From contig NZ_BJLR01000001.1 in NCBI RefSeq assembly GCF_006538745.1, forward strand, positions 62,001-126,000: DNA of 64,000 nt, written 5' to 3'. A program made the position numbers and the translations under genes. Below the pieces are notes generated by a model. That model made no database searches. It was not told the origin of the DNA and saw nothing but the letters and a program-made list of their open reading frames with translations. Positions 14,852 to 31,817 of this stretch are shown here, piece after piece. This DNA is from Cellulomonas cellasea (GTDB lineage Bacteria > Actinomycetota > Actinomycetes > Actinomycetales > Cellulomonadaceae). Each line of letters starts with the position of its first letter. Positions within the stretch are counted from its first letter, which is position 1.

Positions 14852-14925
14852 TAGCGGGGGCAGGATTTGAACCTGCGACCTCTGGGTTATGAGCCCAGCG
14901 AGCTACCGAGCTGCTCCACCCCGCG
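14852..14925 (-). tRNA. tRNA-fMet (CAT anticodon), initiator
   Basis: A 74-base cloverleaf is readable on the minus strand: acceptor CGCGGGG, D-arm GAGC/GCTC with AGCTCGGTA, anticodon arm CTGGG-CTCATAA-CCCAG, 5-base variable loop, T-arm GCAGG-TTCAAAT-CCTGC. The first base pair is an unpaired C1/U72, and the anticodon stem contains three consecutive G:C pairs. Both are hallmarks of initiator tRNA as opposed to elongator Met. The CCA end is not encoded. The 3' end faces the accessory stretch to the left. Confidence 0.95.
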
Positions 14926-21760: not shown

Positions 21761-21835
21761 CTCGTCGCCTCTGCTCTGTGGTTACCGTGGGACACCGCCT
21801 GCCTCCCGCCGGCACATCGTCCCAGGAGCACGCCG

Positions 21836-24885: not shown

Positions 24886-26019
24886 ATGCGGTTGCGCCCA
24901 CACCTGCGCGTCCTGCGGCGGGGCCCGGACGAGCTGCAGGTTGGGACCGACCCGCGGTGGGCTGTCCGCCTCACGGGGCTCGCCGCCGGGGAGGTCGAGC
25001 TGCTGCAGGAGCTCGAGTCCGTGCCCGAGCTCGACCGCTGGGCCACCTGGGCCCTCGACCGGGGACTCGACCGCGCGCGTGCCGAGCAGCTCGTGGCTCT
25101 CCTGGTCGACGCCCAGGTCACGAGCACGTCGGCTGGCCGCAGCCCGACGGTGCGGGCCGGCGCGGGCGCGGACGTCGCGGCGTGGACGCTGCTGCGGCCC
25201 GACGGGGACGGTGCCGCGCAGGTCGACGCGCGCCGCTCGGCGGTGGTCGGCGTGCACGGGCTCGGGCGCCTCGGGCTCGGCGTGGCGACGACGCTCGCGG
25301 CCGCGGGCGTCGGGACGGTCCTGCTCGACGACGACGGGGTCGTGCGGTCGTCGGACGTCGGCCCGGGCGGGTACCGGATGGGGGACGTGGGGTCCGCGCG
25401 GCTCGGGACGGCGACGCGCGTGCTGCGGGACGTCTCCCCGGAGATCCGCTGCGACGCGGCCCCGGGGACGGCACCGGACGTCGTGGTGCTCGTCGAGCAC
25501 GGGGCGGCGAGCCCCGAGACGGCGCTGCGGCTCGTGACCGCGGGCCTGCCGCACCTGTCGGTCGTCGTCCGGGAGGGCGACGCGCTCGTCGGCCCCCTGG
25601 TGGTGCCCGTGGGCGCGGGCGACGGACGCCGCGGGGGTGCCGCCGCGACGGCCGACCACGGCACGGGACCGGCCGGCCCGCCGGGCGGTGGCTCGGCGTG
25701 CCTGCGCTGCCTCGACCTGCACCGAGGTGACGTCGACCCGGCCTGGCCGCTCGTCGCCGCCCAGCTCGTGTGCCGACCGCCGACCTCGAGCGGTCCGCCG
25801 GGCGAGCCCGTCGCGCTCGCGGGGCTGGGCGCCGCACTGGCCGCCGCCGAGACGCTCACCCACCTCGACGGAGGGACGCCGCGCACCCGCGGCGCGGCCT
25901 ACGAGATCGCGATGCCGGACCTCATGCCGCGCCTGAGGCCCTGGGCGGTGCACCCCGACTGCGGGTGCACCGCCCTCCCCCCGACTCCCGTCCCGACCCT
26001 CGCCCGCGCGGGGCGCTGA
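24886..26019 (+). CDS. ThiF/E1-like protein related to TOMM cyclodehydratase partner domain
   Basis: A 377-residue protein. Residues about 1-90 form a winged-helix-like peptide-clamp region (RPHLRVLRRGPDELQVGTDP, then LTGLAAGEVELLQELESVPE). The middle holds a ThiF Rossmann motif (VVGVHGLGRLGLGVATTLAA) and VLLDDDGVVRSSDVGPGGYR. C-terminally there is a CLRCLDLHRGD zinc motif with a further CGC near the end. This is the arrangement of the SagC/cyclodehydratase C-domain class that hands peptides to YcaO enzymes. No YcaO or precursor peptide is nearby, and adenylation residues are not evident. ATG 24886 has GAGAGGGG upstream. It is convergent with whiB7. Confidence 0.8.
   Translation: MRLRPHLRVLRRGPDELQVGTDPRWAVRLTGLAAGEVELLQELESVPELDRWATWALDRGLDRARAEQLVALLVDAQVTSTSAGRSPTVRAGAGADVAAWTLLRPDGDGAAQVDARRSAVVGVHGLGRLGLGVATTLAAAGVGTVLLDDDGVVRSSDVGPGGYRMGDVGSARLGTATRVLRDVSPEIRCDAAPGTAPDVVVLVEHGAASPETALRLVTAGLPHLSVVVREGDALVGPLVVPVGAGDGRRGGAAATADHGTGPAGPPGGGSACLRCLDLHRGDVDPAWPLVAAQLVCRPPTSSGPPGEPVALAGLGAALAAAETLTHLDGGTPRTRGAAYEIAMPDLMPRLRPWAVHPDCGCTALPPTPVPTLARAGR
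25945..25973 (-). terminator. Inverted repeat inside the ThiF-like 3' end, likely whiB7 terminator
   Basis: GCGGTGCACCC (25945-25955) and GGGTGCACCGC (25963-25973) are a perfect 11-bp dyad with a 7-base loop. It lies about 70 bases past the whiB7 stop on the minus strand and within the coding end of the convergent gene. Confidence 0.5.
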
Positions 26020-26041
26020 TCGTCACGGGCCCGGCGAGCCG

Positions 26042-26396
26042 TCATGCCGCCGGAGCGGCAGACTTCCGGGGCCGACCCCGGCCCCGCTTCGTCGCGACGA
26101 CCACGCCGCCGACGAAGACCTCTCCACCCCAGACCCCCCCACGGCTCGGCCCGCTCGACCGCGCCCGCGAGGCACCCCTCGACGAGGGGGCACTCCCGGC
26201 ACAGGGCCTTGGCGAGCTCGACCTGGGCGGTCTGCTCCGCGAACCAGAGCTCGGGGTCGTTCGAGCGGCACGGGATGAGGCCCGCGACCATCTGGTCGAA
26301 CTGCTGGTTGTTCTCGTCCGTCGTGATGACCGGGCTCGGGGGCCACGGGCCGGATCCGCCCTGGTTCACCGTGTCGAGCAGCGTCGTGAGCCGCAC
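26042..26396 (-). pseudogene. whiB7: WhiB7-type Fe-S transcriptional regulator with +1 homopolymer frameshift
   Basis: From GTG 26396 (ribosome site AGGAGG) the frame encodes a WhiB protein with its four cluster cysteines: CRSNDPELWF, LCRECPLVEGC, then ERAEPWG. In a run of seven C (26134-26140) the frame shifts. If one base of that run is skipped, translation resumes as VWGGEVFVGGVVVATKRGRG then RPRKSAAPAA and stops at 26042, giving a normal 117-residue product with the WhiB turn (GVWGGE) and an RGRPRK AT-hook typical of WhiB7. As written, the product loses both and runs on antisense to the ThiF-like gene. WhiB7 with SigA activates intrinsic antibiotic-resistance genes. A sequencing error, phase variation or true inactivation are all possible. 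Confidence 0.85.
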
Positions 26397-26475
26397 GATG
26401 TCCTCCTGATGTCCTTGCTGGTGAGCGTGTGCTGGTTTCCGGATCACCGGTGCCTGCGCCGCTCCCCCGACATCG

Positions 26476-26518
26476 GGAGAAAAGACGAGGGCCGCGGATC
26501 CGAGTGGACTCCGCGGCC
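26476..26518 (-). terminator. Attenuator hairpin in the whiB7 leader
   Basis: GGCCGCGGA (26490-26498) pairs perfectly with TCCGCGGCC (26510-26518) around 11 bases. On the minus strand the stem is followed by CTCGTCTTTTCTC, a real U-rich tail, unusual in this GC-rich window. It lies between the leader reading frame and the whiB7 start, so it can stop transcription before the gene. Confidence 0.8.
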
Positions 26519-26539
26519 TGGAAGACGGTCGTCAGACCA

Positions 26540-26734
26540 TCAAGTTCCTGGTGCGAAGTCGGGGTGGTTCAGCGGGCGACGGCGGTACGTGCGCTTGTGA
26601 TCGCCGCCGATTCCCTGGGAGCCGGCCATGGGCACAGCTGTCCCCTCGAGCCATGCGGAGATGGGCGCGAGGGTGCGCGGGACGAAGGTGATCGCGAACG
26701 TCGACTGCCGATTCACGACGGTTGTGCTCTCCAT
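26540..26734 (-). CDS. whiB7 leader reading frame (64 codons)
   Basis: ATG 26734 with GGGAG seven bases upstream opens MESTTVVNRQSTFAITFVPR and ends at 26540, some 20 bases before the attenuator stem. Third positions are mostly G/C, as expected for translated sequence. In mycobacteria and Streptomyces the whiB7 mRNA leader carries a short uORF whose translation controls a terminator; the same layout here suggests that slow or stalled ribosomes on this frame permit read-through. The peptide has no domain I recognise. It could instead be an independent small protein; an upstream in-frame ATG at 26749 would add five codons. Confidence 0.6.
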   Translation of the reverse strand: MESTTVVNRQSTFAITFVPRTLAPISAWLEGTAVPMAGSQGIGGDHKRTYRRRPLNHPDFAPGT

Positions 26735-26803
26735 CAGATCTCCCACCACCTCTCATCACCGGCCGGGCCTCTTCGGCGCAGCCCTCCTACAAGGACGTGT
26801 CTC

Positions 26804-26843
26804 ACCCTAGGGGTGCCCGTCAGAGGCACACAACCGAATATTC
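26804..26843 (-). promoter_or_regulatory. Autoregulated whiB7-type promoter
   Basis: On the minus strand TTGTGT (-35, plus coordinates 26828-26833) and TAGGGT (-10, 26804-26809) are separated by 18 bases. The AT-rich palindrome GAATATTC (26836-26843) lies two bases upstream of the -35. WhiB7-activated promoters have a short AT-rich element directly next to the -35, bound by the AT-hook, so this fits autoregulation. The leader would be about 400 bases. Confidence 0.65.
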
Positions 26844-27024
26844 CAGGTGATTTCGAGAAGTTTCTTCCGGCCTCCGGACGGCCGTCGCGAGAACCGGGGC
26901 GAGACCCCGCGAACCGGTCCGACCAGCCGCTCCGGCGCACGCGCGCGGACCTCCTCCGGGCACCAGGGAGGGAGCCTTCTGCGGCCACGTCCCACCCGGC
27001 ACCGGCGGCCGGTAGCGTGCCGGC

Positions 27025-28132: not shown

Positions 28133-30199
28133 CTACGCGCTCGTGGCGCGTGACGAGCCGGACGCGACGATCGACAGGAGCGTCGCGCCGTACCGGTCGA
28201 TCTTCGCCGGGCCGATCCCGTTGATGCGCGCGAGCTCCGCGATCGAGGCCGGGCGCAGCTCGGCGATCGACTCGAGCGTCGTGTCGACGAGCACGGTGTA
28301 CGCCGGGCGGGATGTCTCGAGGGCCACGGACGCGCGCCACTCGCGCAGGCGCGCGTAGATCTCGCCGTCGACGTCCCCGGAGATCGTCCGGCGCGGACCG
28401 GGCTCGGGTGCGCGGTACCGGTCCGGCGTCCGCGGACCTCCGCCGCGCCGCTCCTCCTGCGGCCACAGGCCGTCGAGGAACCGGGTCCGGCGGCGGGAGG
28501 CGCGGCCGCCGGGATTGCGGGCGCGCGCGTACGAGAGAGCGAGGTGCTCGCGGGCGCGCGTGATGCCGACGTAGAGCAGCCGCCGCTCCTCCGCGATCGA
28601 CGCGTCGGTCTCCGCGAGGGAGATCGGCATGAGCCCCTCGCTGAGCCCGGCGAGGAACACCGCATCCCACTCCAGGCCCTTGGCCGCGTGCAGCGACGCG
28701 AGCGTGACGCCCTCGACGGTCGGCGCGTGCTGGGCCGCGGCGCGCTCGTCGAGCTCGGCCACGAGGTCCGCGAGCGTCGCGTGGCCCTCCTTCTCCTGCG
28801 CCGCGGCCTCGAGGTCGTCCGCGAGCGCGACGAGCGCCTGCATCGACTCCCAACGCTCCCGGGCGGCGCCGCGCGTCGCGGGGGGCTCGGGGGCCCAGCC
28901 GGCGGAGAGCAGCACGTCGCGCACGACGTCGGGCATCGCGGCGTCGGCGTCGACCGCGCGACCCGCGCCGCGCAGCAGGACGAGCGCGTCCCGGACCTCG
29001 CGGCGGGCGAAGAACCGCTCGCCACCGCGCACGAGGTAGCCGATGCCGGCGGCGGCGAACGCCTGCTCGAACGCCTCCGACTGCGCGTTCGTCCGGTACA
29101 GCACCGCGATCTCGCTGGGGCGGGTGCCCGCGGCGACGAGCCGCCCGGCGCGCTCGGCGATCCCCGCGGCCTCCGCCTCGTCGTCGTCGTACGCGGTGTA
29201 GGTCACCGGCGGACCCGGCGGGCGCTGCGCGATCAGCTCGAGCGGCGCGGCCGGGCCCCGGCGACGGGCCGCCGAGCCGGGCGCGTGCTTGGGCGCGAGC
29301 AGGCGATTCGCGAGCGTGACGACCTGAGGCGTCGAGCGGTAGTCGCGCACGAGCCGGACGACCTGCGCCTTGGGGTGCGACGCGGTGAACGTGAGCAGGT
29401 GGTGCGGGGTCGCGCCGGTGAACGAGTAGATGGTCTGGCTCGGGTCGCCGACGACGCACAGCTCCTGGCGGCCCCCGAGCCACTGGTCGAGCAGGAACTG
29501 CTGGAGCGGGGACACGTCCTGGTACTCGTCGACCACGAAGTGCCGATACTGCATGCGCACCTGCTCGGCCACGTCGTCGCGCCCCGCGAGCATGTCCGCG
29601 AGCATGAGCAGGACGTCCTCGAAGTCGATGACCCCGCGCTCGGTCTTCGCGTCCTCGTACGCGGCGATGAGGCGCGCGACGGCCTGACGGTCGTAGCCGG
29701 CGGGCGCCGGGCGGTCGATCGCGGCGGTGGCGCGCACGTAGTCGTCGGCGGTCACGAGCGAGACCTTGGCCCACTCGACCTCCGAGGACAGGTCGCGGAT
29801 CGCCACCCGGTCGACCGACAGGCCCAGGCGGTGCGCCGCGTCGGCGACGGCCGGGGCCTTGTGCTCGAGGATCCGCGGGGGCGCTCCCCCGACGACCTTG
29901 GGCCAGAAGTACCCGAGCTGGCGCAGCGCCGCGGCGTGGAACGTGCGGGCCTGGACCCCCGCGACGCCGAGCTCGCGCAGCCGCGTGCGCATCTCGCCCG
30001 CCGCGCGCGCGGTGAACGTGACCGCGAGGACGGTCGTCGGGCGGTAGACGCCGGTCCGCACGCCGTACGCGATGCGGTGCGTGATCGCGCGCGTCTTGCC
30101 CGTGCCGGCGCCCGCGAGCACGCACACCGGCCCGGTGAGCGCGAGGGCGACGGCGCGCTGGTCGGGGTCGAGGGCATCGAGGAGGGAGTCGGCGGACAT
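28133..30199 (-). CDS. uvrD2: ATP-dependent DNA helicase UvrD2 (SF1A) with HRDC domain
   Basis: A 688-residue UvrD/Rep-type 3'-5' helicase. It has the Q-motif region LDALDPDQRAVALALTG, Walker A AGAGTGKTRA, motif Ia FTARAAGEM, motif II DEYQDVSPLQ, motif III GDPSQTIYSFTGA, motif IV region VRDYRSTPQVV, motif V TLASLHAAKGLEWDAVF and motif VI YVGITRAREHLALSYAR. The C-terminal ~70 residues form an HRDC module (ASIAELARINGIGPAKIDRY), the feature separating UvrD2 from UvrD1. It unwinds DNA in repair; UvrD2 is essential in M. tuberculosis. The ATG at 30199-30197 has no strong ribosome site. It is divergent from the mycoredoxin gene. Confidence 0.93.
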   Translation of the reverse strand: MSADSLLDALDPDQRAVALALTGPVCVLAGAGTGKTRAITHRIAYGVRTGVYRPTTVLAVTFTARAAGEMRTRLRELGVAGVQARTFHAAALRQLGYFWPKVVGGAPPRILEHKAPAVADAAHRLGLSVDRVAIRDLSSEVEWAKVSLVTADDYVRATAAIDRPAPAGYDRQAVARLIAAYEDAKTERGVIDFEDVLLMLADMLAGRDDVAEQVRMQYRHFVVDEYQDVSPLQQFLLDQWLGGRQELCVVGDPSQTIYSFTGATPHHLLTFTASHPKAQVVRLVRDYRSTPQVVTLANRLLAPKHAPGSAARRRGPAAPLELIAQRPPGPPVTYTAYDDDEAEAAGIAERAGRLVAAGTRPSEIAVLYRTNAQSEAFEQAFAAAGIGYLVRGGERFFARREVRDALVLLRGAGRAVDADAAMPDVVRDVLLSAGWAPEPPATRGAARERWESMQALVALADDLEAAAQEKEGHATLADLVAELDERAAAQHAPTVEGVTLASLHAAKGLEWDAVFLAGLSEGLMPISLAETDASIAEERRLLYVGITRAREHLALSYARARNPGGRASRRRTRFLDGLWPQEERRGGGPRTPDRYRAPEPGPRRTISGDVDGEIYARLREWRASVALETSRPAYTVLVDTTLESIAELRPASIAELARINGIGPAKIDRYGATLLSIVASGSSRATSA

Positions 30200-30511
30200 C
30201 GTGGTCGATTGTCTCAGCCCGCGCCGACAGGCGACGCGGCCCGGTCCACCGGTCGTCCGGCGGCAGCACGACCCGGCCTCCCGATCGCCCGGCGGCGCGG
30301 GCGCCCAGCGGACCCGGCCCACCGGTCGCCGCCCACCGGTCGCCCGGCGGTGCTGCCAACCCGGTCCGCCCTCGCGCCACGGCCGCGTTTGCGACCCGGC
30401 GACGACGGCGGAAGAGTTCGGCCGTCCCGGGCGTTGGACCCGGCGACGACGCACGTCAGACCTCGCCCGCGGCCCACCCGGTCGCCGCGACACCGCACGA
30501 GAGAAGGACGC
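30200..30511. other. Divergent promoter region with CCACCGGTCG repeats
   Basis: About 310 bases without a gene. CCACCGGTCG occurs at 30246, 30319 and 30333, and GGCAGCAC/GTGCTGCC form a distant inverted pair within the same segment. The central location between uvrD2 and the mycoredoxin gene would suit a shared regulator, but none is identified. Confidence 0.4.
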
Positions 30512-30775
30512 ATGAGCACCCAGACGCTTCCCGACGCCGGCTCGATCACGATGTACTCGACGACGTGGTGCGGCTACTGCCGCCGGCTCAAGACGCAGCT
30601 GGACTCGGCGGGCATCGGCTACACCGAGGTCAACATCGAGGAGCAGCCCGACGCCGCGGCGTTCGTCGAGCAGGTCAACGGCGGCAACCAGACCGTCCCC
30701 ACCGTCGTGTTCCCCGACGGCTCCGCCGCGACCAACCCGTCGCTCGCCGACGTCAAGGCCCGCCTGGGGGCCTGA
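30512..30775 (+). CDS. mrx1: Mycoredoxin (Mrx1-type glutaredoxin-like protein)
   Basis: An 87-residue thioredoxin-fold oxidoreductase with the active site C20-GY-C23 after TMYSTTW, the cis-proline segment TVPTVVFPDGS and the C-terminal NPSLADVKARLG. The CGYC motif and its position beside uvrD2 and nudC identify it as mycoredoxin-1, which reduces mycothiol-mixed disulfides with electrons from mycothiol. ATG 30512 has GAGAGAAGGA upstream. It is monocistronic, ended by a strong hairpin shared with the convergent nudC. Confidence 0.93.
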   Translation: MSTQTLPDAGSITMYSTTWCGYCRRLKTQLDSAGIGYTEVNIEEQPDAAAFVEQVNGGNQTVPTVVFPDGSAATNPSLADVKARLGA

Positions 30776-30860: not shown

Positions 30861-31817
30861 TCAGATCGCGTCCGGGAGCTCGGACCCGTACCACTCCTCG
30901 ATCAGCATGCGTGCGATCGAGGTGCTGCTGGGCAGCAGGACCGAGCCCGAGCGCACCGCGGCCCGCAGCTCCGTGCGCTCGAACCAGCGCGCCTGCGTGA
31001 CCTCCTCGCCGTCGACCGTGATGTCCTCGCTGAGCGCGCGGGCCCGGAAGCCGAGCATGAGCGACGCCGGGAACGGCCACGGCTGGCTCCCGCGGTACTC
31101 GACCCCGCCGACCGTGACGCCGACCTCCTCGAGCACCTCGCGGCGGATCGCCGACTCGACGGACTCTCCCGGCTCGACGAAGCCCGCGAGCGTCGAGAAG
31201 CGGTTCTCCGGCCAGTGCGCCGAGTGCCCGAGCAGCAGGCGGTCCCGCCCGTCGACGACGGCCATGATGACCGCCGGGTCGGTGCGGGGGTAGTGGTCGG
31301 AGCCGTCGGCGGTGCAGCGCCGCACCCAGCCGGCGCTGTGCGAGACGGTGACCTCCCCGCAGCGCGGGCACCGCGGGTGGCGCACGTGCCACGCCTCGAG
31401 CGCGACCGCCGCGGTCGCGAGGCCCGCGTCGCGCGCGGAGAGCTGGCCGCCGACCTCGCGCAGCGGGGACCACCGGTCGCCCGGCACGAGCACGGCGGAC
31501 GCGACGTCCGGCACGAGCCGCGCGAGGTAGGCCGTGCCCCGGCCCCCGCCCGGCGCGTCGTCGTGCCCGAGGAACGCCCAGCCCTCGGGCAGCTTCCCGC
31601 CCGGCGAGAGCAGCGCCGCCTCCCCCGGGTCGAGCAGCGCGAGCTCCTGCCCGCCCTGCCCCCCGTCGCGGGTCACGACCGCGCCGGCGTGCACGAGCAG
31701 CACCCGCGTCGCTGCATCGGTCAGCAGGGACGGGACCAGGTCCGGCCGCACACGGGCGTCGGCGGCACGGTCGGTCCGCGTGCGGGACAGCGGCGGCTCG
31801 GCGATCACGCCCGCCAC
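30861..31817 (-). CDS. nudC: NAD(+) diphosphatase / deNADding Nudix enzyme NudC
   Basis: A 318-residue NudC. Zinc-ribbon cysteines C150, C153 and C168 are visible (HPRCPRCGEVTVSHSAGW), followed by HYPRTDPAVIMAV, the Nudix box at about 212-233 (GFVEPGESVESAIRREVLEE) and the NudC-specific SQPWPFPAS. It hydrolyses NAD(H) to NMN(H) and AMP and removes NAD caps from RNA. The fourth zinc ligand is not obvious. GTG 31817 is the longest sensible start; a GTG three codons later (GTG ATC) is an alternative. Confidence 0.92.
   Translation of the reverse strand: MAGVIAEPPLSRTRTDRAADARVRPDLVPSLLTDAATRVLLVHAGAVVTRDGGQGGQELALLDPGEAALLSPGGKLPEGWAFLGHDDAPGGGRGTAYLARLVPDVASAVLVPGDRWSPLREVGGQLSARDAGLATAAVALEAWHVRHPRCPRCGEVTVSHSAGWVRRCTADGSDHYPRTDPAVIMAVVDGRDRLLLGHSAHWPENRFSTLAGFVEPGESVESAIRREVLEEVGVTVGGVEYRGSQPWPFPASLMLGFRARALSEDITVDGEEVTQARWFERTELRAAVRSGSVLLPSSTSIARMLIEEWYGSELPDAI

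What the first reader, a model, noticed from the sequence alone, without database searches (positions are those of the whole stretch)
26042..26396. whiB7 carries a +1 shift in a seven-base homopolymer that removes its AT-hook
Seen: the coding frame is intact through all four Fe-S cysteines and EPWG, then shifts at seven consecutive C (26134-26140, plus strand). Counting six restores the WhiB turn GVWGGE, the RGRPRK AT-hook and a stop at 26042. Known: WhiB7 needs the AT-hook to bind next to the -35 of resistance promoters. Inference: this is either a sequencing error, a phase-variable switch for intrinsic antibiotic resistance, or a fixed loss. A switchable master resistance regulator would be new.
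Basis: partly seen in the sequence, partly recalled or inferred. Interest (0 to 1): 0.75.

Follow-up and report, generated by a model that had tools for sequence, protein, structure and literature searches.

The report
Antibiotic-response regulator gene broken by slippage
In this actinobacterium the gene for WhiB7, a master switch of natural antibiotic resistance, has lost its reading frame in a run of identical bases, most likely a recent chance loss of the kind already described in tuberculosis bacteria, although a sequencing error cannot be ruled out.

Summary
The window (a Cellulomonas-like draft genome) holds a whiB7 orthologue whose frame is intact from GTG 26396 through four cysteines and EPW. 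It is then lost in a seven-base G run (26134-26140, minus strand), leaving the AT-hook in another frame. Of 99 distinct whiB7 sequences compared, 97 are in frame; the exceptions are the window and one Cellulosimicrobium broken elsewhere in the gene. A sister species (about 91% identical where aligned) has an intact copy that differs, in the pieces beside the run, by 7 silent and 0 replacement codons, so any break is very recent. Among 159 genes compared with that sister, whiB7 was the only clear uncompensated frame break inside a gene, which argues against an error-prone assembly. The host has NucS and no MutS, and NucS does not repair small indels (PMC11551767). Best reading: a recent slippage null allele. 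Indels at the same GVWGG codons of M. tuberculosis whiB7 are published. Nothing here supports an evolved switch: the 23 relatives found with a similar long run are in frame. A single assembly error stays possible.

The parts
26142..26396 (-). whiB7 5' part: GTG start, four Fe-S cysteines, EP of EPW; frame intact
   Evidence: protein identical to the sister-species piece
26134..26140 (-). seven-G run (C on the plus strand) in which the frame is lost
26042..26131 (-). displaced 3' part of whiB7: rest of the turn, RGRPRK AT-hook and stop, now in another frame
25899..26133 (-). out-of-frame tail that would be translated instead; overlaps the convergent ThiF-like gene on the other strand
   Evidence: ORF 25899..26447; ThiF match
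26540..26734 (-). upstream ORF of the whiB7 leader (64 aa)
   Evidence: inside ORF 26540..26749; kept open in the aligned sister leader by eye; not shown in more distant leaders
26490..26518 (-). leader hairpin followed by a T-rich stretch (attenuator-like terminator)
   Evidence: -23.8 kcal/mol for 26475-26530, z -3.51; stem sequence largely conserved among 13 aligned leaders
26804..26842 (-). putative autoregulated promoter: AT-rich stretch 26837-26842, -35 TTGTGT 26828-26833, -10 TAGGGT 26804-26809
   Evidence: GTTGT of the -35 region and TA of the -10 invariant in 13 aligned leaders; assignment as a WhiB7 promoter is inference by analogy with PMC3905903

Best explanation
The window carries a genuine, very recent loss-of-function allele of whiB7. 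A replication slip changed the length of a G run in the codons of the EPW-GVWGG turn, in a host whose mismatch repair (NucS, no MutS) is not expected to correct such slips. The expected product keeps the Fe-S domain and EPW but loses the rest of the turn and the AT-hook, so it should not activate its own promoter or a resistance regulon. The strain should then be unusually sensitive to WhiB7-controlled antibiotics such as macrolides. Promoter and attenuator leader look intact, so the defect lies in the protein. Shown: frame break, intact relatives, silent-only divergence on both sides, repair-gene content. Inferred: that the reads support the assembly, the slippage mechanism, and the phenotype. 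Such an allele could slip back at an ordinary low rate; nothing suggests it evolved as a switch.
For: Frame break confirmed. 97 of 99 distinct sequences in frame. In two pieces (85 + 30 codons) window and sister differ by 7 silent and 0 replacement codons. Of 61 G/C runs of six or more in the window's genome within about 243 kb aligned, 16 are identical in the sister, 40 have the same length with substitutions, 4 lie at gapped diverged places, and only whiB7 is a pure length change. Of 159 compared genes it is the only clear uncompensated in-gene break. MutS_I: no match, while 11 of 14 control genomes match. NucS_C: one match, 7 of 14 controls match. NucS does not repair 1-2 bp indels in M. 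smegmatis (PMC11551767, passages). Removing the C-terminus with the AT-hook prevented WhiB7-dependent resistance (PMC3905903, passages). Same-site loss alleles exist in M. tuberculosis. No second hook-bearing WhiB found (next own match E 0.85; one other weak WhiB match, E 5.6e-4).
Against: No reads are available and the genome is a 50-contig draft of unknown technology, so one assembly error would look the same; silent-only divergence fits an error perfectly. No second isolate of the species is held. Counted from the sister's side (65 runs) two more pure one-base length differences appear, both shorter in the window's genome: one in no called gene, one inside a gene but offset by a gap 13 bases away. 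The 3' piece has 5 changes in 90 bases against 2 in 255 for the 5' piece, unexplained, though all are silent.
Confidence: 0.6

Rival explanations
1. Assembly or sequencing error in a GC-rich seven-base run; the living strain has an intact whiB7.
For: A long run is a likely place for an error; the break is isolated, with silent-only change around it; draft of 50 contigs, technology unknown; two other one-base run differences from the sister exist outside genes or offset nearby.
Against: No other pure length change among 60 further window-side G/C runs of six or more, and no other clear uncompensated in-gene break among 159 genes.
Confidence: 0.28
2. A phase-variable switch: the run lengthens and shortens often enough that populations hold cells with and without active WhiB7, as a bet on antibiotic exposure.
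For: Run in the coding sequence, no MutS found, precedent of a reversible 7C run in M. tuberculosis glpK (PMC9346131 and PMC8701281, passages; PMC8701281 calls its role in tolerance debatable).
Against: 23 of 23 other whiB7 genes found with a similar long run are in frame, and 93 of 99 distinct sequences have only a run of four, in frame. In M. tuberculosis L1.2.1, 101 of 101 sequenced clarithromycin-resistant isolates kept the broken allele (PMC9159947). In M. smegmatis, reporters needing a +1 slip in a 5-base run gave 10-74 resistant colonies per 10^8 (PMC9346131), which I judge low for a dedicated switch.
Confidence: 0.07
3. Programmed ribosomal or transcriptional slippage on the G run still makes some full WhiB7, so the break is regulatory.
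For: G runs can allow slippage in principle (general knowledge, recalled).
Against: The out-of-phase run is seen in none of the other 98 distinct sequences, so no such arrangement is conserved.
Confidence: 0.03

Closest known systems
M. tuberculosis whiB7 Gly64delG / c.191delG (lineage named L1.2.1 in PMC9159947, L1.2.2 in PMC10432532) and c.192dupC
   Same: Single-base indels in the same GVWGG codons that shift the frame and remove the AT-hook; Gly64delG was shown to be loss of function
   Different: There a pathogen lineage carries the allele and the phenotype was tested; here one non-mycobacterial draft genome, a seven-base G run, no phenotype
M. tuberculosis glpK 7C homopolymer phase variation
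   Same: Seven-base run in a coding sequence, host without MutS
   Different: Reversibility was reported there; here there is no evidence for it
WhiB7/WblC autoregulated activator with attenuated leader
   Same: Four cysteines, EPW, AT-hook sequence, leader ORF, terminator-like hairpin, conserved promoter block
   Different: The hook is out of frame in this window

Membership tests
WhiB7 (Wbl family) | four conserved Fe-S cysteines and Whib domain | tested here: met
WhiB7 (Wbl family) | EPW motif followed by the GVWGG turn | tested here: not met
   EPWG present, turn disrupted in the frame as written
WhiB7 (Wbl family) | C-terminal RGRP AT-hook in frame | tested here: not met
   hook encoded in a different frame
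WhiB7 (Wbl family) | leader with terminator and AT-rich stretch before the -35 | tested here: met
   by sequence only; upstream ORF compared only with the sister
Phase-variable contingency locus | repeat tract in coding sequence whose length sets the frame | tested here: met
Phase-variable contingency locus | in- and out-of-phase tract lengths among relatives | tested here: not met
   23 of 23 other long-run carriers found are in frame
Phase-variable contingency locus | reversible switching within a clone | not testable with these tools
   no reads or second isolate
Loss-of-function whiB7 alleles | frameshift upstream of the AT-hook | tested here: met
Loss-of-function whiB7 alleles | hypersusceptibility to macrolides | not testable with these tools
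   needs the strain

The most novel reading that the evidence does not exclude
The G run in the turn codons is a reversible on/off switch for the whole WhiB7 resistance programme in a clade whose repair ignores indels, so colonies of one strain differ in intrinsic antibiotic resistance.
Probability: 0.07. Interest if true: 0.75.

Novelty: new member of a known kind. Interest (0 to 1): 0.27.

Why it matters
If real, it shows that loss of WhiB7 at the same turn codons also happens outside mycobacteria. That would make these codons a recurrent weak spot of the resistance regulator in hosts without MutS. If the run proved to switch within clones, intrinsic resistance itself would be a bet-hedged trait.

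Tried and rejected
Second whiB7 copy compensating: rejected. One other weak WhiB match, and no other hook-piece match in the genome better than E 0.85.

Old pseudogene: rejected by 7 silent and 0 replacement codon differences from the sister.

Error-prone assembly as a general property: not supported. One search (129.5 kb) found 376 non-triplet gaps, 18 of them isolated; of the 18, only the whiB7 one was taken as lying in a long run within a gene. One search flagged 35 of 159 genes by a crude rule, largely through over-long or run-on ORFs. with a modal-phase rule flagged 29. All 29 were looked at by codon position of mismatches (18, whiB7 among them; 11). The others were judged run-on ORFs over two genes, over-long starts, or short compensated or diverged stretches. 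g116 (5' region), g67 (3' end) and g55 stay less than certain. For g55 the shift lies beside a C run at 21801, upstream of ATG 21836 and its ribosome-site-like AGGAG, so I place it outside the gene; its Zincin_2 domain is complete.

Conserved programmed frameshift: rejected. Rfam gathering search found only a tRNA. NCBIfam gave no family for the 85-aa piece or the intact relative.

Literature: whiB7 + frameshift + homopolymer gave 2 papers (PMC8701281 passages, PMC5760664 listing only). whiB7 + phase variation 10 (listing; PMC7591249 passages). whiB7 + phase-variable 4 (listing). Cellulomonas + whiB7 1 (listing). wblC + frameshift + homopolymeric 0. Searches were listings used to find the papers quoted. 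None that I saw describes a switchable whiB7; the library holds open-licence papers only.

Full report
Observation. The minus strand of the window has a run of seven G at 26140-26134. From GTG 26396 the frame is open through four cysteines to ...AVERAEP at 26142, and this piece matches Pfam Whib above its cut-off. After the run the same frame reads a basic, unrelated tail to a stop at 25899. The piece 26042-26131, read by itself, encodes the end of the WhiB turn, the RGRPRK AT-hook and a stop.

Where it is. The window lies in a 4.73 Mb, 50-contig genome, 99.98% complete. The best protein relatives are in Cellulomonas and neighbouring genera. whiB7 lies near a UvrD-type helicase with an HRDC domain (28133-30520) and a NudC-like NAD diphosphatase (30861-31817), the neighbourhood I recall for M. 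tuberculosis whiB7 (uvrD2, nudC; recalled, not tested).

Relatives. One search kept the best 80 of 148 named loci; one search gave loci for the best 30 of the 54 matching genomes (59 searched), own copy included. These 110 loci collapse to 99 distinct sequences, of which 97 are in frame with turn and hook. One exception is the window. The other is L068, Cellulosimicrobium sp. CUA-896, whose frame breaks between the last cysteine and EPW. A pattern search for long G runs at this place found 15 matching genomes among 396 drawn from the order and 13 among 221 of the family; the two sets overlap. Read out, one match is not whiB7 (L160), the window is out of phase, and the other 23 distinct genomes are in frame with the hook. 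The pattern demands exact flanks, so it misses some variants. The 85-aa piece is found in 209 of 221 family genomes and the hook piece in 210 of 221; a same-genus genome, G001, has neither at those thresholds.

Age of the break. The nearest relative, G003, is a one-contig genome, 91.3% identical over 244,509 alignment columns, counting only aligned blocks of 900 columns or more at 80% or better. Its whiB7 is in frame (L083). In the 85-codon and 30-codon pieces there are 2 and 5 silent and no replacement differences. The gene was therefore under selection as whiB7 almost until the present, so the break is either very recent or an error.

Error test. In about 243 kb of the window's genome aligned to G003, 61 G/C runs of six or more were scored: 16 identical, 40 of equal length with substitutions, 4 at gapped diverged places, and whiB7, the only pure length change. 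Scored from the sister's side there are 65 such runs: 15 identical, 36 with substitutions, 14 with gaps. Three of the 14 are pure one-base changes: whiB7, and two that are shorter in the window's genome. Of these two, one lies in no called gene and the other is offset by a gap 13 bases away. Of 159 G003 genes compared over 192,732 bases, 29 were flagged by the modal-phase rule and all 29 were inspected by mismatch codon position. whiB7 was the only one I judged a clear uncompensated break inside a gene; g116, g67 and g55 are the least certain of the rest. This makes a generally error-prone assembly unlikely but cannot exclude a single error.

Mechanism. The genome has one NucS_C match and no MutS_I match (11 of 14 controls match). 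NucS of M. smegmatis does not repair 1-2 bp indels (PMC11551767, passages). Mycobacteria are described as having a higher frequency of frameshifts in runs, explained by the lack of MutS/L (PMC9346131, passages). A slip in the G run is thus the natural origin. For mycobacterial WhiB7, removing the C-terminus with the AT-hook prevented WhiB7-specific resistance in vivo, the hook is placed at the AT-rich stretch upstream of the -35, and SigA binding does not need it (PMC3905903, passages). The product here also loses the second half of the turn, so it is expected to be inactive (inference). The leader is kept: a 64-aa upstream ORF (compared only with the sister), a stable hairpin followed by T (z -3.51), and a promoter block partly invariant in 13 aligned leaders.

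Known precedents. M. tuberculosis whiB7 Gly64delG is present in all isolates of one sublineage, truncates the AT-hook and fails to complement; 101 of 101 clarithromycin-resistant isolates kept it (PMC9159947, passages). A survey of 40,520 isolates found c.191delG in 1098, with two isolates of L1.2.2.1 lacking it, and c.192dupC arising in more than one lineage (PMC10432532, passages). So the event is a new member of a known kind.

Switch or not. The reversible glpK 7C run (passages) shows that a seven-base run can switch in such hosts. Against a whiB7 switch: the other long-run carriers found are in frame, and 93 of 99 distinct sequences have only a run of four. I give it 7%.

Verdict. Real observation; most likely a recent loss allele (0.6), next an assembly error (0.28). 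A switch is unsupported but testable by reads.

Noticed in passing
L068 (Cellulosimicrobium sp. CUA-896): A second whiB7 with a broken frame, between the last cysteine and EPW and not at the G run.
   Followed up: partly
G001 (same genus): No whiB7 piece at E<=1e-12 and no hook piece at E<=0.01 in a 220-contig, 97% complete genome; gene loss or a gap.
   Followed up: no
window 26142-26860: The 5' part of whiB7 (2 changes in 255 bases) and, by eye, much of the leader are closer to the sister species than the roughly 91% average of aligned blocks; strong constraint or recent exchange.
   Followed up: no
window 26042-26131: The 3' piece has 5 silent changes in 90 bases against 2 in 255 for the 5' piece.
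   Followed up: no
family genomes of genera g7 and g15: Two hook-piece matches in 12 of 13 listed g7 genomes and 4 of 4 g15 genomes, perhaps a second AT-hook WhiB paralogue.
   Followed up: no
window 21801: A C run of seven in the sister is shorter and interrupted in the window, just upstream of the zincin-like gene's ATG 21836.
   Followed up: partly
window 14852-14925: tRNA gene on the minus strand.
   Followed up: no
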